Positions 15,215 through 60,045 of a stretch of 64,000 bases of DNA are shown one piece after another. Position 1 is the first letter of the stretch. Each line of letters opens with the position of its first letter. A program made the position numbers and the translations under genes. This DNA comes from Luidia sarsii (Eukaryota; Echinodermata; Asteroidea; Paxillosida; Luidiidae). The stretch spans positions 16,652,359 to 16,716,358 of the forward strand of contig OX465111.1 in the NCBI GenBank assembly GCA_949987565.1, written 5' to 3'. The notes beneath the pieces are model-generated. The model did no database searches, was not told where the DNA came from, and worked only from the letters and a program-made list of their open reading frames with translations.

Positions 15215-18200
15215 ATGTCTCCAGTGGCGGACAGAGCTGTGGCGGCCATCGTGGGCGGAGTTGTGAGCGATGCTGCAGGTTTGTGTACAAACTAAAGTTA
15301 ACAAGTTAATACAAAAACTGTTGCAAACTGCTCACTGACTAAAATGACCATAAATCTCAAAAATTAGAGGGCCTGACGTTTCGAACCAAGCAGGACCTTT
15401 CTCAAAGGCAGGTGTGATCCCTGGAGATAAACGGCAGTTAATGGTTGAAATGCTTCTGACTGGCGCCCCCATCTTGGCTAAGACAAGTTGATTATTTCGG
15501 GAGGCCACCATTTAATTAACTTTAAGGGCTGGATAGCTCAGATGGGAAGAGTGCTGGTACATTAATCCAGAGGTCTCGGGTTCAAGTCCCAGTCCAGTCA
15601 GAGTTTTCTTTGCCACTTCTTCAAAATAAAATGTTATGTAAGTTGTATTGTACTTTGTACTTTGTTCTTTGTACTTTGTACTTTGTTCAAACATGGAGGG
15701 GGTCGGGCGATAATATCGCCCGACCCCCTAAAATCTTTCCTAAAAATAGTTCATGTATGTAATTCTCCCTATTGTTCCCCTCAGCCCAGCCACTTCACTG
15801 GATCTACAATCTGCAGAAATTGGACAACATCGTCGCAGACAAGCAGGGATCCCTGGAGTTCTGGGAACCATCCCAGAACCCGTACTACTGCATTGAGACA
15901 GGGCGGGGAACCGCCTATGCCGATCAACTCCTGGCGTTGCTAGAATCGCTGGTGGAATACGAGGGTAAACATGGGCTTCGGCCGTTTTTGTGAACTTCCA
16001 GCTCGTGGGTCCAGTTCCCAGGCATCAGTTGATATGCATGCAGAGCAGTCGTCCCTGTCATTCCCCTGGTTGCCTGTATACCGGCCAAAGGGACATGGGG
16101 AGATAGAGTCTCAATAATACAGAGAGTACTGACAACTTTATTAATTTGGATGCCATTTTGTTTCCATTGTTCGGTACAACGTGGGGTTCGCAAACAACTT
16201 GTTGCAGATAAGGGCCCTTTTTGAAAACCCGGCTTAGGCTTCGGCTCCGGCTTCGTCGCTGTTATCCCAAAGCTGAAAACACAGGTTGGAGTTCTTTCTG
16301 TTAAAGTTAAGCTTTGGATTCCTTTTCAATTCGGAGTAAAACATTAAAAAATTATGTCAAATGCTTCCTGCTTTCATGTCTTCTATTTGAAATGGATGAA
16401 AGAACTAGAGACAAAGCCGGAGCCTGAGCCTAAGCCGGGCTTTGGAAAAGGGCCCATGTTTGACCTAAACAATTATTTTCCTGAAGCAGATCACCTGTTG
16501 GTGACAACTCAGTGGGCATGCCGCGAAGCCCACGCTGTACCGAACATAACCAAACAGGAGTGTGGCTCTGAAAAGAGCTGGTAACTCAACGATTCGGTCT
16601 GTACTCTGCCCGAAACGTTGAGTTACCGGCTGTTTTCAGAGATGCACTCCTTTTCGAACGAGAAGTGTGACATGGTGTCACCGCAAACCTTCCACTTGGA
16701 AAGTTATTTTTCCTTAGAATTGACCGATTGTGCGACCACTTTGAGTCTTTTCTTTTCATTTATGCACAGGCTATGATGGAACTAAGTATATGGAGAAACT
16801 TCAGGCCAGGATGGGAGCGGGCACGGAGTACGACAATCAGCTGAACAGCCGCTTTGTGTTGAAGAGTGGCGTGAAGAAGACCTACCCCATCCAGGGACCC
16901 TGGAGGCCAAAGGTCATCAAAGACTTCCTGGCCAATCGGGCCAAAGGACTGGAGAGGACAGGTGAGGGTCTCACCTTCCCTCCTCAGCATCCTCAACCTC
17001 ATCTTCCTTATCATCCCCAACCTCATCAGCCTCCTCACCCTCACCATTGCCCTCATTGCCTTCATCCTCCTCATCCTCATCACCCTCAACCTGTACTCCA
17101 CATCTTCTTTATCCTCAATCTCATCAGCCTCATCTTCCTTATCATCCTCAACCTCATCAGCCTCATCTTCCTTATCATCCTCAACCTCATCAGCCTCCTC
17201 ACCCTCGCCATTGCCCTCATTGCCTTCATCCTCCTCATCCTCATCACCCTCAACCTGTACTCCACATCTTCTTTATCCTCAATCTCATCAGCCTCATCTT
17301 CCTTATCATCCTCAACCTCATCAGCCTCATCTTCCTTATCATCCTCAACCTCATCAGCCTCCTCACCCTCGCCATTGCCCTCATTGCCTTCATCCTCCTC
17401 ATCCTCATCACCCTCAACCTGTACTCCACATCTTCTTTATCCTCAATCTCATCAGCCTCATCTTCCTTATCATCCTCAACCTCATCAGCCTCCTCACCCT
17501 CGCCATTGCCCTCATTGCCTTCATCCTCCTCATCCTCATCACCCTCAACCTGTACTCCACATCTTCTTTATCCTCAATCTCATCAGCCTCATCTTCCTTA
17601 TCATCCTCAACCTCATCAGCCTCCTCACCCTCGCCATTGCCCTCATTGCCTTCATCCTCCTCATCCTCATCACCCTCAACCTGTACTCCACATCTTCTTT
17701 ATCCTCAATCTCATCAGCCTCATCTTCCTTATCATCCTCAACCTCATCAGCCTCCTCACCCTCGCCATTGCCCTCATTGCCTTCATCCTCCTCATCCTCA
17801 TCACCCTCAACCTGTACTCCACATCTTCTTCATCCTCAATCTCATCAGCCTCATCTTCCTTATCATCCTCAACCTCATCAGCCTCCTCACCCTCGCCATT
17901 GCCCTCATTGCCTTCATCCTCCTCATCCTCATCACCCTCAACCTGTACTCCACATCTTCTTCATCCTCAATCTCATCAGCCTCATCTTCCTTATCATCCT
18001 CAACCTCATCAGCCTCCTCACCCTCGCCATTGCCCTCATTGCCTTCATCCTCCTCATCCTCATCACCCTCAACCTGTACTCCACATCTTCTTTATCCTCA
18101 ATCTCATCAGCCTCATCTTCCTTATCATCCTCAACCTCATCAGCCTCCTCACCCTCGCCATTGCCCTCATTGCCTTCATCCTCCTCATCCTCATCACCCT

Positions 18201-21200
18201 CAACCTGTACTCCACATCTTCTTTATCCTCAATCTCATCAGCCTCATCTTCCTTATCATCCTCAACCTCATCAGCCTCCTCACCCTCGCCATTGCCCTCA
18301 TTGCCTTCATCCTCCTCATCCTCATCACCCTCAACCTGTACTCCACATCTTCTTTATCCTCAATCTCATCAGCCTCATCTTCCTTATCATCCTCAACCTC
18401 ATCAGCCTCCTCACCCTCGCCATTGCCCTCATTGCCTTCATCCTCCTCATCCTCATCACCCTCAACCTGTACTCCACATCTTCTTTATCCTCAATCTCAT
18501 CAGCCTCATCTTCCTTATCATCCTCAACCTCATCAGCCTCATCTTCCTTATCATCCTCAACCTCATCAGCCTCCTCACCCTCGCCATTGCCCTCATTGCC
18601 TTCATCCTCCTCATCCTCATCACCCTCAACCTGTACTCCACATCTTCTTTATCCTCAATCTCATCAGCCTCATCTTCCTTATCATCCTCAACCTCATCAG
18701 CCTCATCTTCCTTATCATCCTCAACCTCATCAGCCTCCTCACCCTCGCCATTGCCCTCATTGCCTTCATCCTCCTCATCCTCATCACCCTCAACCTGTAC
18801 TCCACATCTTCTTTATCCTCAATCTCATCAGCCTCATCTTCCTTATCATCCTCAACCTCATCAGCCTCCTCACCCTCGCCATTGCCCTCATTGCCTTCAT
18901 CCTCCTCATCCTCATCACCCTCAACCTGTACTCCACATCTTCTTTATCCTCAATCTCATCAGCCTCATCTTCCTTATCATCCTCAACCTCATCAGCCTCC
19001 TCACCCTCGCCATTGCCCTCATTGCCTTCATCCTCCTCATCCTCATCACCCTCAACCTGTACTCCACATCTTCTTTATCCTCAATCTCATCAGCCTCATC
19101 TTCCTTATCATCCTCAACCTCATCAGCCTCCTCACCCTCGCCATTGCCCTCATTGCCTTCATCCTCCTCATCCTCATCACCCTCAACCTGTACTCCACAT
19201 CTTCTTCATCCTCAATCTCATCAGCCTCATCTTCCTTATCATCCTCAACCTCATCAGCCTCCTCACCCTCGCCATTGCCCTCATTGCCTTCATCCTCCTC
19301 ATCCTCATCACCCTCAACCTGTACTCCACATCTTCTTTATCCTCAATCTCATCAGCCTCATCTTCCTTATCATCCTCAACCTCATCAGCCTCCTCACCCT
19401 CGCCATTGCCCTCATTGCCTTCATCCTCCTCATCCTCATCACCCTCAACCTGTACTCCACATCTTCTTCATCCTCAATCTCATCAGCCTCATCTTCCTTA
19501 TCATCCTCAACCTCATCAGCCTCCTCACCCTCGCCATTGCCCTCATTGCCTTCATCCTCCTCATCCTCATCACCCTCAACCTGTACTCCACATCTTCTTC
19601 ATCCTCAATCTCATCAGCCTCATCTTCCTTATCATCCTCAACCTCATCAGCCTCCTCACCCTCGCCATTGCCCTCATTGTCTTCATCCTCCTCATCCTCA
19701 TCACCCTCAACCTGTACTCCACATCTTCTTTATCCTCAATCTCATCAGCCTCATCTTCCTTATCATCCTCAACCTCATCAGCCTCATCTTCCTTATCATC
19801 CTCAACCTCATCAGCCTCATCTTCCTTATCATCCTCAACCTCATCAGCCTCCTCACCCTCGCCATTGCCCTCAATGCCTTCATCCTCCTCATCCTCATCA
19901 CCCTCAACCTGTACTCCACATCTTCTTTATCCTCAATCTCATCAGCCTCATCTTCCTTATCATCCTCAACCTCATCAGCCTCATCTTCCTTATCATCCTC
20001 AACCTCATCAGCCTCATCTTCCTTATCATCCTCAACCTCATCAGCCTCCTCACCCTCGCCATTGCCCTCATTGCCTTCATCCTCCTCATCCTCATCACCC
20101 TCAACCTGTACTCCACATCTTCTTTATCCTCAACCTCATCAGCCTCCTCACCCTCGCCATTGCCCTCATTGCCTTCATCCTCCTCATCCTCATCACCCTC
20201 AACCTGTACTCCACATCTTCTTTATCCTCAATCTCATCAGCCTCATCTTCCTTATCATCCTCAACCTCATCAGCCTCATCTTCCTTATCATCCCCAACCT
20301 CATCAGCCTCCTCACCCTCGCCATTGCCCTCATTGCCTTCATCCTCCTCATCCTCATCACCCTCAACCTGTACTCCACATCTTCTTTATCCTCAATCTCA
20401 TCAGCCTCATCTTCCTTATCATCCTCAACCTCATCAGCCTCATCTTCCTTATCATCCCCAACCTCATCAGCCTCCTCACCCTCGCCATTGCCCTCATTGC
20501 CTTCATCCTCCTCATCCTCATCACCCTCAACCTGTACTCCACATCTTCTTTATCCTCAATCTCATCAGCCTCATCTTCCTTATCATCCTCAACCTCATCA
20601 GCCTCATCTTCCTTATCATCCCCAACCTCATCAGCCTCCTCACCCTCGCCATTGCCCTCATTGCCTTCATCCTCCTCATCCTCATTGCCCTCAACCTCAT
20701 CATCCTCATCACGAACAGCCGAGAATGCACGCGCCCGAACTCGACCAGTGAGTCTTATTTCATTGTTTTCTCTGCAGGTTCCCAGGTATCAGCTGATATG
20801 CATGCAGTCATCCCTGTCATTCCCCTGGTTGCCTTGTACGCCGGCCAAAGGGATATGCTGGAGATAGTGGAGAGCGCCATCGCTGTAGTCACGGACACCG
20901 AGGAGGGGATTGCCGTGGGTCTTGCTGCAGCCAGGTACTGGCTTCTCAGATGGTTGAATAATGGTCCTAAATGATGCAAAGTAGGCCAATTATTAGGGCA
21001 CTAAGGCCAATTGGTAGGGCACTGAGGCCAGTTGGTAGGGCACTGAGGCCAGTTAGCAGGGCATTGAGGCCAGTTGGTAGGGCACTGAGGCCAGTTGGCA
21101 GGGCACTGAGGCCAGTTGGCAGGGCACTGAGGCCAATTGGCAGGGCATCCAGGCCAGTTGGTAGGGCACCCAGGCCAATTGGCAGGGCACCCAGGGCAGT

Positions 21201-23296
21201 TGGCAGGGCACCCAGGGCAGTTGGCAGGGCATCCAGGCCAGTTGGCAGGGCATCCAGGCCAGTTGGCAGGGCACTGAGGCCAGTTGGCAGGGCATCCAGG
21301 CCAGTTGGTAGGGCACCCAGGCCAATTGGCAGGGCACCCAGGGCAGTTGGCAGGGCACCCAGGGCAGTTGGCAGGGCACCCAGGCCAATTGGCAGGGCAC
21401 CCAGGGCAGTTGGCAGGGCACCCAGGGCAGTTGGCAGGGCATCCAGGCCAGTTGGTAGGGCACCCAGGCCAGTTGGCAGGGCATCCAGGCCAGTTGGCAG
21501 GGCACTGAGGCCAGTTGGCAGGGCACCCAGGCCAGTTTGCAGGGCACCCAGGCCAGTTGGCAGGGCACTGAGGCCAGTTGGCAGGGCACCCAGGCCAGTT
21601 TGCAGGGCACCCAGGCCAGTTGGCAGGGCAGCCAGGCCAGTTGGCAGGGCACTGAGGCCAGTTGGCAGGGCATCAAGGCCAGTTGGCCCATGATAGTATC
21701 AGTTCACAACATTACTAGGCAGTGTCAGTAGTTTACAGTCAGAGGGACTCATGACCACGGTGCAATTTCATAGTCTCTTAAGTGTAAAAATCTTCTAAGT
21801 TAGAAAAGTCTCCCTTGTGTTCACAGGATTACAAACTGCACTGTGATGAGATGTCAATTGCTTTTGGCTTGTATTTCACTCTTCTTTACTTTGCTTGAAG
21901 CAAAGGTGAAGTTTGGGTTGGCAAGGTGATCCTATGAATTGTGACTTTGTTTTTATTTTCCTCCGTGTTCTCAATCTAGGATCCTGGAGCAGTTCATCCT
22001 GAAGCCTGGCATGGATGGAGTCACGGCCCTGCAGGCTGTCATTGCTGAGCTTGGCAATCCTGACCGAAACAACCCCAACGACTTGGACCGTGCCGTGATG
22101 GGCCAGCTGAAAGAGGTGCTCGCCAGACAGGTCTTTGACCACCGCGGTGCGGCCAAGAAATTCTTCAAGAACAGCTGAGGTGAGGAGTGCTGCTTGGAGC
22201 TCGCATGTCAGTGTTATGGGCGTGAGATTTGGGGTGGCTTGTGTCTTACTCTGAGACCTGGAAAGTTAATGAAAGTCACAGTGTCCTCAGTGCTTTGCCC
22301 GATTGCCTACTGAAAAAATCCAGGCAACTTGGGCAGGAATCAAATCCGTAACTTCTGCTTTCCAGTGCACAGTCTTAACCACTTGATTGACTTGACCACC
22401 GAGCTAGTTAAGGTTGTGTGGTGGATTCAAATATGTATCATAGATATTATACGATGTTTGCATCAATGAGATTGTAATTTATTGACTGTTTGCCATACTC
22501 GATGTAATAAGCACTGTGTGCTCAGTGCTTTGCCCGATTGCCTGATGAAAAAAATCCAGGCTGTTCGTGTAGGATTCAAATCTATGACTCCTGCTTTCTG
22601 GTGCAGACTTCTGAACCACTTGACCACCAAGCTTGTTTTTTCCCCCTGATCTCTTTACAGACATACCGGGGGCCTTTCAGTCGGCCCTCCACTGTCTGCT
22701 CAGCCACACTGAGCTGGCCCCTGCCGTCCGGAAAACCATTCTGGCCGGCGGTTGCAACTCCAGTCGCTCAGGGTTCATCGGTGCCTGCCTAGGAGCAAGG
22801 GTGAGCTTCTGATAAAGATTTCTGCCAAATTACCCCCCAGGACACTTTTCTTACCCTAGCAACGATAGTCAACCAATTGGAAATGACCCCCCCCCCCCAA
22901 CGGGCTACAACTACCTAAGGGCTGGATAGGACAGGTGGTTAAGCCCTGGAACATTCTCAGGTCTTGGGCTTGAATGCCTTTCCTGTTAAATTGTCTATGC
23001 TGTTCAATCAAGTCCTAAAGGAGGAACTTTGTAGGAACTTTTTATGATCTATTTTTTAAGTTGAACAGTTACATTGTAATATAGTTACTGTTAGTTCAAC
23101 CCCAGCAGGACCTTTGATAGCTCTAGGCAGAAGGATTAGAAGTGTCCACCCGGCTAACTTTGGTGATTTCATACTTTTTATCATTCTGCAACAGAATGGT
23201 CTTCAAGGCATCCCAGAGATGTGGAAGGCCAAGACCCTGGCTTTTCCCACAGTCCTCGATCTCTCCCAGCGATTGGCCACACTCCAGAAGGCTTAG
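15215..23296 (+). CDS. SELENOJ: Selenoprotein J (J1-crystallin/ADP-ribosylglycohydrolase family)
   Basis: SelJ belongs with jellyfish J1-crystallins inside the ADP-ribosylglycohydrolase fold family; its function is uncertain and a lens role was proposed in fish. Exons: 15215-15278, 15785-15964, 16770-16961, 20778-20934, 21980-22179, 22661-22800 and 23195-23296. All have GT-AG borders and compatible phases. The product is 344 residues if TGA at 22176-22178 is read as selenocysteine (residue 264). Family landmarks: IVGGVVSDAAAQPLHWIYN at the N-terminus, YCIETGRGTAYADQ, GPWRP, and near the C-terminus GGCNSSRSGFIGACLGAR, then NGLQGIPEMW. The last region replaces the metal-binding GGDTD of active hydrolases with GGCNS, so classical ADP-ribose hydrolysis may be lost (inference). 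Intron 3 is nearly all minisatellite. Without readthrough the protein would stop 80 residues early, inside the conserved fold. Confidence 0.95.
15313..15415. repeat. Rep-C in SELENOJ intron 1
   Basis: A good single-arm copy: AAACTGTTGCAAACTGCTCA, ACTAAAATGACC, GAGGGCCTGACGTTTCGA and CAGGACCTTTCTCAAAGGCA in order. This order recurs at 48133, 54795 and 55770. Confidence 0.75.
15527..15625 (+). repeat. SINE-A in SELENOJ intron 1
   Basis: One of the best copies: GGCTGGATAGCTCAGATGGG, A box at about 15533-15545, B box GGGTTCAAGTCCC at 15578-15590, then AGTTTTCTTTGCC. It is followed by a TTTGTACTTTG repeat at 15645-15690 and a CGCCCGACCCCC palindrome. Confidence 0.85.
16500..16702. mobile_element. 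Pal-G palindromic element in SELENOJ intron 2
   Basis: Pal-G has ends AAGGTTTGCGGTGACACCATG and a hairpin around GAGTGTGGCTCTGAAAAGAG. Here the inner hairpin (GTAACTCAACG against CGTTGAGTTACC) is clear, and the right end CATGGTGTCACCGCAAACCTT is at about 16674-16694. The left end is replaced by other sequence. Other copies are at 37135, 59345, 59895 and 63904. Confidence 0.7.
16965..20725 (+). repeat. Nested minisatellite filling SELENOJ intron 3
   Basis: A C/T-rich array of about 25 copies of a 131-bp unit, each marked by CTGTACTCCACATCTTC. Spacing between markers is 131, 164, 197 or 98 bp, because an inner 33-bp block (CCTCATCTTCCTTATCATCC...) is gained or lost within units. As 131 is not a multiple of three and the unit has no stop, all three plus-strand frames stay open for over 1,200 codons. 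That is a property of the repeat, not coding evidence. It starts just after the exon 3 donor and ends about 50 bp before the exon 4 acceptor. Confidence 0.95.
20988..21692. repeat. 21-bp minisatellite in SELENOJ intron 4
   Basis: About 34 tandem copies of GCCAGTTGGCAGGGCAC followed by 4 variable bases (TGAG, CCAG and similar). Variant types (ACTGAGG, ATCCAGG, ACCCAGG) occur in blocks, suggesting higher-order duplication. The period is a multiple of three, so long repetitive frames exist on both strands. The array sits between exons 4 and 5 with intact splice sites on each side. Confidence 0.95.
22176..22178 (+). other. SELENOJ: In-frame TGA predicted to encode selenocysteine
   Basis: The TGA is followed by one G and then the exon 5 donor (G/GTGAGG). 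The next exon restores the family sequence immediately (DIPGAFQSALHCLL). Only this donor keeps the phase to exon 6. Seven intact exons with strong family conservation after the TGA argue against a simple stop or a pseudogene. Confidence 0.9.
22255..22640 (-). repeat. Two SINE-B copies in SELENOJ intron 5
   Basis: Two head-to-tail copies (about 22255-22430 and 22480-22640). Each holds GTGCTCAGTGCTTTGCCCGA, a reversed B box (GGATTCAAATC) and a reversed A-box end (CTTGACCACCGAGCT). The second copy ends about 20 bp before the exon 6 acceptor, and its tail may contribute to the branch region. Confidence 0.7.
22918..23000 (+). repeat. Degenerate SINE-A in SELENOJ intron 6
   Basis: GGGCTGGATAGGACAGGTGG, TTAAGCCCTGGAACATT, GGTCTTGGGCTTGAATGCC and TGTCTATGCTGTT follow the SINE-A order with many substitutions. 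Confidence 0.55.
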
Positions 23297-23591
23297 GATC
23301 GGGCTTAGGCTTCGGTCATATTTCTCTCATAGACATCTAGAAACAAGCATTTGGCCCCAGTTTCTTGGTGAATACTGTGTACTTAACAAGCCAACAAACA
23401 AATTCAGCAACAAATCACAGCTGGGATTTTCATGTTTTTTCAGACGTAGACGAAGCCTAAGCCCGAGCCTGATCCATGGATTCGTAAAGGGCCAAAGTTG
23501 TCTGTTATTTTAGTAGATTTCTCATTTCTACATTCCTGGATTGCTGACAACTGCTTGCGTCAAAATTAGTTTCTGTGCAGCATTTCCTTTA

Positions 23592-23676
23592 AAGGCATGC
23601 GGAATCGATGAAGGAACGAGAGAAAATGTAACACAAGTTACAACTCTGGTTCCGGAAGGCCCTGGTCCACTGTCTT
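23592..23676 (+). promoter_or_regulatory. SELENOJ: Type II SECIS-like element in SELENOJ 3' UTR
   Basis: A SECIS hairpin in the 3' UTR recruits SBP2/EFSec so that UGA is read as selenocysteine. About 310 nt after the TAG stop, ATGA (23608-23611) is followed by an 11-nt helix strand (AGGAACGAGAG), then AAAA containing the apical AA. A second perfect helix follows (TGTAAC with GTTACA around ACAA), and then the return strand CTCTGGTTCC. GGAA at 23654-23657 supplies the opposing GA of the non-Watson-Crick quartet. The spacing of 11 nt from ATGA to AA is standard, and the extra top helix makes it type II. A weak lower helix may pair AAGGC (23592-23596) with GTCTT (23672-23676). Confidence 0.87.
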
Positions 23677-24193: not shown

Positions 24194-26285
24194 ACAATCA
24201 CACCTGTATTGGGAGCTTGTCTGTCTCAATATGATGTTGAGGGTAACCTCCATCCAGTTGCTTACGCAAGTAGAGGGTTACGTGGACCTGAACGGAATTA
24301 TAGCGATCTTTCCAGCTTTAAACTTGAATTGCTAGCACTTAAGTGGGCTGTAGCGGACAAATTTAAAGAATACCTGATAGGAGGAAAAACTACTGTGTGG
24401 ACTGATAACAACCCAGTCGCACATATCCAGACCGCCAAGTTGGGTGCCACCGAGCAACGTTGGGTCGCCCAACTTGCACCATTTAACCTTGAAATAAAGT
24501 ATCGCAGTGGCCGAACGAATAAATGCGCGGATGCTTTAAGCCTAAATCCTAGTAATGACAGTGCTCCTACCGTACATGTGTCTACATTGACTGCCTCTGT
24601 AGCCCAATGTACTGAACTACCGGCATGTGTGCAGGCAGCGCAACAAGTCGTGTCCTCTACCGAGACAGGTGTTGTTGAAAGGAAACCAATTGATTTACCC
24701 GGTGTTACTCCCTCGGTGTTGCCTTCCTTCTCTTTTGATGAGTTGTCATCCTTGCAGAAGGAGGATCCCATCCTGTGTAGAGTTTGGTTTCTATGGAGTA
24801 GTCGATGGAAACCTGGTGAGGAAGTCGCGGACCCTGATCTTTTGTCGGCTGAGACTAAAGGTTGGATTAAGGAGTGGGCCCGATTGGTGGAGTGTAATAG
24901 TGTTTTATACCGTTCTGTTGAAGAACCGGGTTTGGGGCCTGTCCACCAGCGGCTCATTCCAAAATCACTGCGATTGACAATGATCGAGGCATCTCACGAC
25001 CATTGGGGTCATCAGTGAGTTGGCAGGACGCTGATGTTTATCAAGAGACGTTGTTTCTGGCCGGGCATGAATGTACATATCAAAGAGCATATACACAGTT
25101 GCTACCATTGTGCTCTAACTAAAACCCCAGTACCCGTTGTACGTCCTGCTACGAGACACTTGCTATCTTTCCAACCCCTTGAGCGATTAGCCATCGACTT
25201 TCTGAAACTTGAACCTGGTCGAGGCAATATTGAGGACGTCCTCGTCATGACTGACTCCTTCACAAAATTTGCGGTCGCTGTTCCGTGTAAAGACCAAAAG
25301 GCGCCCACTGTAGCTAAGGCCTTGCGAGACCATTGGTTCTGTTATTACGGGATTCCAATGCAGTTACACTCGGACCGTGGAAGGAATTTTGAGGGCGGCA
25401 TCGTAAAAGAGTTGTGCAAGTTGTACGACATCCGGAAAACGAGGACGACCCCATATCACGCGCAAGGAAACGCCCAGACTGAGCGGTTCAATAAGACGCT
25501 CTGTGGCTAATTAATCAAATCACTAAATCAGAAGAGTCGGAAGCAATGGCCTGAATTACTACCTCATTTTAGTGTTCATATACAATTCTACACCACACAG
25601 TGTTACCGGTTTTACCCCATACTTTTTGATGTTTGGTCGCCAACCAACGGTCCCATTGGATCAGTTGATTAACAACACCCGCGGAGACTGGAATGAAGAT
25701 AGGCTCACTAAGGCGGCAGCTGCTAATAAACGTCGCTACGATAAACGTGCGCATGCGTGTCCGCTTCCAGTTGGTAGCAGGGTACTCCTTAAGCGTTGTG
25801 CGTTCAAAGAGCGGCATAAGTTGAGCGACAACTACGGTGACCTTCAGTACGTAGTAGTTGAACGCAACAAAGAAGGCGACCTTTACGCATTACGACCCGT
25901 GACTGGTGGCGCAGAGCGTTGGGTAAATCGGAAGATGCTCATTCTCGATCCGAGAGGAGAGACAGTTCATTATAGTTGTGACGATCCTCCCCTTGGCCTT
26001 CCACTGGTATCGGAAAACAATGACCCGGATCCGTCTGATGACTCTGACGAAAGTTCAGAATGTGAAATCCTGGTACCCACGTTTCATGGTATAAGTCCAG
26101 ACGAGCCAGAGCTTAAGACTCCCGGAGTGTCACAGACGCGTGAACAATCAATACCGGATAGACCAACGAAATCAAGTGAAAGCCTCGCTGACAACCCGGG
26201 CGACGGTGCTCTAGGTCCTAGCGCATGCGCTGCGCATGAGCCTGAGCAGAATACACCGCGCAGGTCTGAGCGCATTCGTCCGTAA
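24194..26285 (+). pseudogene. Broken gypsy-type pol: RNase H and integrase
   Basis: RNase H landmarks run from 24209 (GACLSQYD, LELLALKWAV, VWTDNNPV, NKCADALS). After an Ala/Thr-rich linker the integrase begins with a zinc-binding region (SHDHWGHQ, then CYHCALTK). Its core carries three acidic positions in [21 protein letters not shown] and [15 protein letters not shown]. The C-terminal part (MFGRQPTVPLDQL to RSERIRP) follows. Breaks: an in-frame TGA at 25016-25018 between zinc region and core, a TAA at 25508-25510 just after the core, and a frame change near 25565-25572 before the final frame (25572-26285). The frame upstream is closed by TGA at 24191-24193, where the conserved start of RNase H is also damaged. 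Confidence 0.9.
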
Positions 26286-47558: not shown

Positions 47559-50500
47559 ATGGAATTTAAGTTCAGTATCAACAGCCTGTTCGGGGAGAGC
47601 GTGACGATCGTCGATCACCGCCTGGAGCCTCACGGATCAACAGGGTAAACTGCCAAACTTTTAATTTGGAACGAACGGAGTCTGATTCAAACATCACCTT
47701 CCCTGATCTGGCCTATGGCCACAGGTTCAAAGAGTGTGGACCGAAACTAAGTTATGCTGCTCTCCGATCATGTTGATCTTGGAGTGGATCGAGTAAAGAC
47801 ACTAGATCAGTTAAAGAATACAAACACCCCTTCAAACTACAAGGGTAATTCGTAACGTGCAGAACTCGGTATTCGGTAGTAATAATATTATTGTCTATTG
47901 AATGAAACTCAGCCTTTTTATGACCACCTTCCCCTTCCTCATTACCCTCTTCATAGTTCCTTGCTCTATCCATGCTCTATCATGACTCAATGCCCTCTTC
48001 ATCCTCCTCGTCCTCCTTCCGAGTATTTCCTAATAAACATTTGGTGGCTTAGTACTACTAGTACTACTACTGCTTCCCCCAAAGTGTTTATTTTGGTTTC
48101 ATTTAACTAGTCCATTATTGTGATATACAAAAATGTTGCAAACTGCTTACTGACTAAAATTACCAAAATGTAAATCTAAAATTGAGTGGGCCTGATGTTT
48201 CGATCCTAGCAGGACCTTGCTCAAAGGCAGAGTGACAATTTTAGTCCATTATTGAATATTTTATTGAATAATTATAGTTTGTGTGTGTGGTTTCAATTTC
48301 TGAATTTGAATGTCAGATCCCTCCTCTATCTCCATGGTCAGATGTAATGTTTGTAATTACCGTAGAATGTCGATTGAAAACTTCTGCTTTCTGAGCAGGG
48401 GTGGATTTCACAAACCAGAAAGCCTTACAAATTAATAGTACAATGCATCGTAACTCAAGTTGCGATGGGTTTGGTGAAATCGACTGCAGAACATGCATCT
48501 TCACGAATCACAGCAGTTGCATTAATTGCCATTCCTGTAAATTCTTGTCCATTTTACACTACAGTGAAAACTTGAGAGCACATATGGAACAAGTCATTGA
48601 TGAGATGGGACAAGCATCAGCTAAGGTATGTGGACATTTTCAAGACGGAGCCATTTATTTTGGGGGGCAGGTTATATTCACCCAGCATTCTTCTCCCAAA
48701 TGCTATTCAGCCGGTCCCTTACTTTGATTGGCCAATTGTCATCACTTGTTGTCGGCTCTCTTGCTCGAAAGGTTATTCTGCCGTAGGTCATTCCTAAGTA
48801 AACTTTCGGGCAAGAGAGCCGGCATGACGTAAATGACAGTTTGCCAATCAGAGTATGTGACGGGCAGAATAGTGTTTGCGGGAAGAATGCCGTTGCCGGG
48901 TCAAAATACATTGCCTTTTTTTTTCACTTGAACTAATGATTACTATTTAATTATGTTTGATTTTCAGTCCATAGATGGACTGATCTATTTCAAACTTTTC
49001 AAAGGCTAACTTTCCCTACATAAATCCTGTGTGAACTTGTGAAGAGGTGGAAATAGTCTTGCTGTATCATAAGTTTATATTCATTTGTAGCCTTTCTCTG
49101 TTGTTGCCTCTGTCGTTCATTTAAGGCTCAAGGACTTCATGGCCCCATCACGTCAGCGCACAAACTCCGCTTCTCCAATCACCACCTCTACGTAATGAAG
49201 GACACACCAGCCAACGGGTAGGCACTTGTACAAAACAAACCTAAACATTGTTTGAATTTCATTGAAAGTGAAGGTAAATCTGACCAGGAAAATTTGTAAA
49301 CAATTCAAAATTTGGCAAAGAATATGTAACGTTCCAGTGCTCCTACCACCTGAAATACCGGTACCCAGCCCTTAGTCTCCAATCACCACCTCTACGTAAT
49401 GAAGGACACACCAGCCAACGGGTAGGCACTTGTAAAAAACCAACCTTAAAATTGTTTGAATTTCATTGAAAGTGAAGGTAAAACTGGAAATTTGTAAACA
49501 ATTCAAAAATTGGCAAAGAATATGTAACGTTCCAGTGCTCCTACCACCTGAGATACCGGTACCCAGTCCTTAGACTGCAGCCTTCCCAGATAGTCAACTA
49601 GTCTTTGCGGGGTTGGGGCGCCAGTTAGAAGCATTAACCATTAACTGCACTACATAGTATCCAGGTATCAATTCCTTGTTTTTCATTCAGATGCCACTTT
49701 AAAAAAAAAAGTGGCACAGTGCCCTGACTCCCTCATGTGTTATCCCAATGGACAGGGGTCTTGGTGCTGCAGTGGGCATCCTGAAGGTGGGCCGGAAGAA
49801 GCTCTTTGTCCTGGATGCCCACGGCAAGCAGACGGAGATGGAGCCGCTGTGCGTGCTGGACTTCTACGTCCACGAGTCCTGCCAGAGGAGGGGATGCGGG
49901 AAGACGCTGTTCCAGGCCATGCTTACGGTGAGTCCTCCGTTCCAGTGCAGCTTGGATTTGTGGCGGAGTCTGCTCTGTAAGTCCACCATCACTTCCTGCC
50001 AAGGTCACACTGGTTTCCTCTGTGCTGGTTCACGCAACTTTCCATGCGAGCCCAATCATTTAAAGTGTGAGTGTCGTGCACGTAAACACCTTGTTTTCAT
50101 CTTAACATCATCAAAATGAAAGGGAGACGGTAATAACGAAGGCTTGGTTACTTTGCTCCATAATGTACAGTAGTGAGAGCGAGTCATTGGAGTTATGTTC
50201 GTTTTCCAAACCCTAAATCTGATAACTTTTTTATCACTCTGCCTTTGAGAAAGGTCCTGCTAGGATCGAAATGTCAGGCCCACTAAATTTTTGAAACTTT
50301 TTATCAAGACGATTTGTGGCAAAGCGTGAGCCAGTTAGTCTTGCCCAGTCGACCTCAACATGACGTAATGAAGTCTTCTTGGTTCATTTGTCCGCTGTGC
50401 AAAAGGACAAGAGCCAAGTCACTGCAGTTATATTCCATTGTCTTCTCTCCTCTTGCAGCATGAGGGACTACAGGCCCAGCATCTGCCCATAGACAGACCG

Positions 50501-59340: not shown

Positions 59341-59530
59341 GGAAGGTTTGCGGTGACACCGTGTAACACTTCCCCTTTCGAGGAGTGTGGCTCTGAAAAG
59401 AGCCGGTAACTCAACACTTTGGGCAGAGAACACACTACGCAAAATGTTGAATTACCGGCTCTTTTCAGAGCCACACTCCTTCTCAAAAGAGAAGTGTTTC
59501 ATGGTGTCACTGCAAACCTTCCACTTAGTA
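59341..59530. mobile_element. Pal-G, nearly complete palindrome
   Basis: Left end GGAAGGTTTGCGGTGACACC, inner arms GTGTGGCTCTGAAAAGAGCC and GGCTCTTTTCAGAGCCACAC, right end ATGGTGTCACTGCAAACCTTCC. The two halves pair over most of the 185 bp. Confidence 0.88.
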
Positions 59531-59857: not shown

Positions 59858-60045
59858 AGATTTGAAGGTTTGCATGGTGAGAATAGCAGGATAATAAGGT
59901 TTGCGGTGACACCATGTAAATTCTCTTTTGTGAGTAAGTGTGGTTCTGAAAAGAACCGGAGGACCAGAGTTCCTCCGGTTCTTTTCAGATCCACACTTAC
60001 TCACAAAAGAGACTTTACATGGTGTCACCGCAAACCTATTTATCC
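59858..60045. mobile_element. Pal-G, second nearly complete palindrome
   Basis: Preceded by GAGATTTGAAGGTTTGCATGG. Left arm GGTTTGCGGTGACACCATG...TTCTGAAAAGAACCGG, right arm CCGGTTCTTTTCAGATCC...ACATGGTGTCACCGCAAACC. The first 98 bp recur at 63904-64000. Confidence 0.88.

What the first reader, a model, noticed from the sequence alone, without database searches (positions are those of the whole stretch)
15215..23676. Complete selenoprotein J gene with in-frame TGA and matching SECIS
Seven exons encode a J1-crystallin/ADP-ribosylglycohydrolase relative. One in-frame TGA (22176-22178) interrupts it, and conserved family sequence continues in phase for 80 residues beyond it. About 310 nt after the true stop is a hairpin with ATGA, an 11-nt helix, an apical AA bulge, an extra top helix and an opposing GGAA, the type II SECIS layout. 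The TGA and the SECIS were recognised independently and support each other. The family is known from fishes and sea urchin; automatic annotation would truncate this gene or call it a pseudogene.
Basis: partly seen in the sequence, partly recalled or inferred. Interest (0 to 1): 0.95.

Follow-up and report, generated by a model that had tools for sequence, protein, structure and literature searches.

The report
Starfish selenoprotein J gene
A starfish gene appears to read one stop codon (UGA) as selenocysteine to make selenoprotein J, a protein already known from fishes and some invertebrates; it is a clean new example of a known kind.

Summary
Seven GT-AG exons (15215-23296) encode 344 residues with one in-frame TGA, residue 264. 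The 80 residues after it match PF03747 on their own and are as conserved against Acanthaster as the part before (73% v. 66%). A type II SECIS-like hairpin lies 311 nt after the stop and is the only hit of a consensus scan of the window; Rfam's SECIS model gave no hit. The genome encodes tRNA-Sec, anticodon TCA. Of 137 relatives, 53 end 0-1 residue before this site and 35 carry Cys there by script rule (55 and 36 after checking). A paralogue in the same genome has TGT for TGA before the same phase-1 intron. COX1 places the host among starfish. SelJ is in print for lancelet, fishes and algae, so this is a new member of a known family. Sec insertion is not shown; other selenoproteins, SBP2 and eEFSec could not be checked because the genome search was mostly unavailable.

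The parts
15215..15278 (+). exon 1 (start codon 15215)
   Evidence: GT donor; phase 1 after it
15785..15964 (+). exon 2
   Evidence: AG/GT, phase 1
16770..16961 (+). exon 3
   Evidence: AG/GT, phase 1
20778..20934 (+). exon 4
   Evidence: AG/GT, phase 2
21980..22179 (+). exon 5, carries the Sec codon one base before its end
   Evidence: donor score 10.31 bits, best in 22100-22185 (matrix recalled)
22176..22178 (+). in-frame TGA, proposed Sec264
   Evidence: site at which many relatives end or carry Cys; the genome's paralogue has TGT there
22661..22800 (+). exon 6, first residues after Sec (DIPGAFQSALHC...)
23195..23296 (+). exon 7 with stop TAG 23294-23296
23608..23657 (+). type II SECIS-like element: ATGA 23608-23611, helix II 23613-23622/23644-23653, AAAA 23623-23626, top helix 23627-23632/23637-23642, GGAA 23654-23657

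Best explanation
This is an intact selenoprotein J (SELENOJ) gene of a starfish. Its mRNA is spliced from seven exons. In the 3' UTR a type II SECIS hairpin is expected to recruit the SECIS-binding protein and eEFSec with tRNA-Sec(UCA), so that the UGA at codon 264 is read as selenocysteine and translation runs on 80 residues to the TAG. The product should have the ADP-ribosylglycohydrolase fold but has lost the Asp pairs of two motifs of active members; Sec264 stands where many relatives have Cys, so a redox or structural role for that residue is more likely than classic ADP-ribose hydrolysis. Shown here: gene structure, conservation, position, hairpin, tRNA-Sec gene. Inferred: SBP2/eEFSec recruitment, Sec insertion, function of the protein.
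Against: Rfam's SECIS model did not hit. No record that visibly bears U was aligned; the tools write U as C. No expression, ribosome or mass-spectrometry data. PF10262 (Rdx) was not found in the genome by exon-wise search; the GPx search did not complete and SBP2 and eEFSec were not searched. One relative, P0130, reads straight through the site with Trp: either a gene caller that reads TGA as Trp or a true Trp codon; not resolved. A weaker donor at 22146 (4.96 bits) would skip the TGA in frame, losing 11 residues (frame from the sequence).
Confidence: 0.95

Rival explanations
1. The TGA is an ordinary stop and the protein is a 263-residue truncated J1-crystallin relative, as the gene models of Patiria, Asterias and sea urchins have it.
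For: 53 of 137 proteins end 0-1 residue before the site by script rule.
Against: The 80 residues beyond it keep phase and splice sites and are 73% identical to Acanthaster, against 66% upstream; they hold the C-terminal end of the PF03747 domain; the residue is Cys in 35 of 137 and in the genome's own paralogue; a SECIS-like hairpin follows.
Confidence: 0.02
2. A nonsense mutation has made this a pseudogene or a broken allele.
For: The single in-frame TGA; minisatellites in introns 3 and 4 and an inverted repeat at the stop codon show a fluid locus.
Against: The rest of the reading frame and the splice sites are intact; models of other starfish and sea urchins end at the same position, which a private mutation would not give; short end branch of the window gene in the tree (0.046).
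Confidence: 0.01
3. Splicing removes the TGA, for instance by a donor at 22146, and the protein contains no Sec.
For: A donor at 22146 scores 4.96 bits and keeps frame; the Acanthaster model P0001 and other models read past the site without Sec or Cys.
Against: The donor right after TGA-G scores 10.31 (matrix recalled). P0002, 85% identical, comes from a 1132-bp contig too short for the introns of an 8-kb gene and ends at the site, so it is probably a transcript that keeps a stop there.
Confidence: 0.02

Closest known systems
Selenoprotein J (SELENOJ) of fishes, sea urchin, lancelet
   Same: PF03747 domain, Sec site, following xxPGxFQ motif, SECIS-like element in the 3' UTR, tree position
   Different: A starfish sequence: 68% identical to Acanthaster, 48-51% to sea urchins, about 42-45% to most fish members. 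Sea urchin models end at the Sec site. Lancelet SelJ is listed in Table 1 of PMC3473315 (passages).
Crystallin J1A-like Cys paralogues of starfish (P0064, P0069, P0122 and this genome's C2 gene)
   Same: Same family, same residue site; in this genome's C2 gene the same phase-1 intron after the codon
   Different: Cys (TGT in the C2 gene) in place of Sec; separate group of these four, 100/99
ADP-ribosylglycohydrolases (DraG, ARH1, ARH3, MJ1187)
   Different: TDD and GGDTD of MJ1187 are TAYAD and GGCNSS here

Membership tests
Selenoprotein J | ADP-ribosylglycohydrolase-like (J1-crystallin) domain | tested here: met
   PF03747 E 7.3e-28, residues 10-319
Selenoprotein J | in-frame TGA at the family's Sec site, with Cys in homologues | tested here: met
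   sea urchin models end at the same residue
Selenoprotein J | Sec aligned directly on a record that shows U | tested here: inconclusive
   U is written as C by the tools; records named selenoprotein J have C at the site, skip it or end at it
[quoted passage not shown]
   consensus scan and fold; Rfam's SECIS model gave no hit
Selenoprotein J | groups with SelJ in a gene tree rather than with the Cys paralogues | tested here: met
   the 23 SelJ-side rows are set apart with 93/90, the six Cys-side rows with 94/87, neither starred; window gene inside the starfish group with 100/98
Selenoprotein J | host decodes Sec: tRNA-Sec | tested here: met
   control: the model is over its cut-off in 5 of 14 control genomes
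Selenoprotein J | host decodes Sec: SBP2, eEFSec, SPS2, SecS | not tested
   not searched; genome search tool mostly unavailable
Selenoprotein J | Sec present in the protein | not testable with these tools
   needs 75Se or mass spectrometry
Active ADP-ribosyl hydrolases (DraG/ARH) | fold | tested here: met
   on the Glandiceps homologue
Active ADP-ribosyl hydrolases (DraG/ARH) | metal-binding Asp motifs TDD and GGDTD | tested here: not met
   TAYAD and GGCNSS in the window protein against TDD and GGDTD in MJ1187; the role of these Asp residues is recalled

The most novel reading that the evidence does not exclude
The Sec form of SelJ is an old bilaterian gene rather than a fish and sea-urchin oddity: proteins from starfish, sea urchins, lancelets, fishes, molluscs, an annelid and a brachiopod end at this one codon. 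Starfish keep side by side a Sec copy and a Cys copy that in this genome differ by one base of the codon (TGA/TGT) before a conserved intron, a natural test of what selenium adds to an ARH-fold protein that has probably lost hydrolysis.
Probability: 0.65. Interest if true: 0.4.

Novelty: new member of a known kind. Interest (0 to 1): 0.27.

Why it matters
It adds a complete, well-supported starfish SelJ gene, shows how current models lose its last 80 residues, and points to a Sec/Cys paralogue pair in one genome. As far as I know (recalled) the function of SelJ remains open, and the pair would allow a direct comparison. The Sec form seems wider among bilaterians than the finding assumed.

Tried and rejected
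Host: a lancelet was suspected at first; the tree puts lancelets elsewhere and COX1 pointed to starfish. Species not identified. Rfam SECIS: no hit. PF10262 exon-wise search in the genome: no hit; short exons make this weak evidence. Search for the 85% relative in viral contigs: nothing. A SECIS covariance model from other selenoproteins of this genome was planned but dropped, as the GPx search did not complete. The first SelJ paper (10.1073/pnas.0505146102) is not held; statements about it are recalled. Literature: searches showed no title on starfish SelJ, but three listings were capped (25 of 876, 30 of 49, 15 of 489), and only passages of PMC3473315, PMC3316567, PMC2375036, PMC2397514, PMC7539508 and PMC12822975 were seen, so 'not in print' is not claimed.

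The SECIS scan pattern is my own, recalled from the consensus and written with the candidate in view. The Sec-site tally uses pairwise alignments and a CxxP/CxxA rule; it misplaced P0098, P0108 and P0095, found on checking. The multiple alignment of the first 77 hits plus the query gave 25 and 4 ending 0 and 1 residue before the site, 15 C (one being the query itself), 30 gap, 2 S, 1 F and 1 ending 25 residues before; among the 30 gaps are Cys rows shifted by one column. Both homologue searches scored only the candidates sharing most words (7999 and 7996), so the lists are not complete. One search failed and was corrected.

Full report
What is there. The window is G000:C13:16652359-16716358 of a 471-Mb genome in 227 contigs. 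Seven exons, with GT-AG introns throughout, join to a 1035-nt reading frame of 344 residues with a single in-frame TGA at 22176-22178, codon 264, and a TAG at 23294-23296. The TGA is the last full codon of exon 5, one base before a strong donor. The spliced protein matches Pfam PF03747 (ADP_ribosyl_GH) at 98.5 bits; the 80 residues after the TGA alone match its C-terminal end at 40.6 bits.

Is the TGA read as Sec? Two homologue searches gave 137 different family members (77; one listed at E<=1e-40, 60 of them new). Aligned pairwise to the window protein, 53 of 137 end 0-1 residue before the site, 35 have a Cys at it, 45 read past it with the site missing or replaced, 4 end elsewhere. Reading those 45, P0098 and P0108 in fact end at the site and P0095 has Cys there, which makes 55, 36, 42 and 4; one of the 42, P0130, reads straight through with Trp. 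The Trp could be a TGA read as Trp by a gene caller or a true Trp codon; the DNA was not seen. Proteins that end at the site include starfish (Patiria P0003, Asterias P0004), sea urchins (S. purpuratus P0123, Lytechinus P0119), lancelets (P0036, P0038), a ratfish (P0111), abalones, a chiton, an annelid (Owenia) and a brachiopod (Lingula). That these stops are TGA was not seen, as only proteins were available. Salmonid members carry Cys; the same sequence in P0006 and P0011, known only from the source lgn, which I take to be raw-read assemblies, argues that this is a true Cys codon. Identity to Acanthaster is 58/79 after the site and 174/263 before it; of 11 relatives compared, P0034 and P0064 were less alike after the site than before, the other nine more alike.

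A Cys copy in the same genome. Besides this gene, a search of the genome found two exons of a paralogue on contig C2; further exons lie between them. Its exon corresponding to exon 5 ends AGC TGT G|gtgagt, where the window gene has AGC TGA G|gtgagg: the Sec codon is a Cys codon and the intron phase is the same. In the tree this paralogue groups with three Cys-bearing starfish proteins (100/99), apart from the SelJ side (93/90).

SECIS. The hairpin runs from ATGA (23608) to GGAA (23657), 311 nt after the stop. It has GGAACGAGAG/CTCTGGTTCC (9 pairs and one G.G over 10 steps), AAAA, TGTAAC/GTTACA with loop ACAA, and a single A. The 51-nt core folds at -18.3 kcal/mol, z -5.56, none of 200 shuffles as stable; the 68-nt and 106-nt stretches have z -2.62 and -2.79. 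A consensus scan finds it as the only hit on both strands of the window and none in L010-L013, 36 kb. Markov sequence gives 36 hits in 6.4 Mb, 0 with a 6-bp top helix; of 5000 resamples of the 3' flank 50 have a hit and 2 one with such a helix (an earlier run gave 15 of 1000 with a hit). Rfam's model did not report it, which I weigh lightly because the layout is complete, but it is a result against.

Decoding in this genome. A tRNA-Sec lies at C2:26271609-26271694, 74.2 bits against a cut-off of 47, called tRNA-SeC with anticodon TCA by ARAGORN. The 27 further matches fall under the cut-off, and matches at E<=0.001 occur in 14 of 14 control genomes (over the cut-off in 5), so only the top match counts. 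SBP2 and eEFSec were not searched, the GPx search did not complete, and PF10262 gave no hit.

Host. COX1 sits on contig C227, is a full 517-aa frame under the echinoderm mitochondrial code, and its six best matches, all named, are starfish genera at 94-95% (that the six genera are starfish is recalled). In the SelJ tree the window gene pairs with an unnamed jgi sequence (85% identical) and sits beside Asterias, Acanthaster and Patiria; crinoid, sea urchins and acorn worm follow.

Known or new. SelJ is listed for lancelet (PMC3473315), fishes (PMC3316567) and algae (PMC7539508), each seen as passages; sea urchin is recalled from the 2005 paper, which is not held. The window gene is a new member of a known kind. 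The wider distribution and the Sec/Cys pair are the more interesting points and need DNA from the relatives.

Noticed in passing
16014-16106: A decayed partial copy of exon 4 (20778-20867) with indels lies in intron 2.
   Followed up: partly
16993-20712 and 20995-21687: Intron 3 is mostly a minisatellite (periods called 24 to 393 bp) and intron 4 holds a 21-bp minisatellite of 33 copies.
   Followed up: no
23290-23475: Inverted repeat (25-nt arms, 88%) whose first arm spans the TAG stop codon; similar-looking arms occur at 16205-16462. A small inverted-repeat element may have supplied or displaced the stop.
   Followed up: no
16557-16579, 59382-59479, 59918-59962: Rfam histone 3' stem-loop hits (59452-59497, 59918-59962) fall in palindromic sequence, with a copy of the motif in intron 2 of SelJ; probably a repeat that resembles or captured the histone stem-loop, not histone genes.
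   Followed up: partly
24209-25510: Retroelement pieces: RNase H-like domain and integrase core. Described only.
   Followed up: no
49748-50119: Exon of an alpha-tubulin N-acetyltransferase (Mec-17, PF05301, 89 bits).
   Followed up: no
15527-15600: tRNA-like Asn sequence (anticodon ATT) inside intron 1.
   Followed up: no
P0130 (a relative, 204 aa): A SelJ relative from an unnamed source reads through the Sec site with Trp: perhaps TGA translated as Trp by a gene caller.
   Followed up: partly
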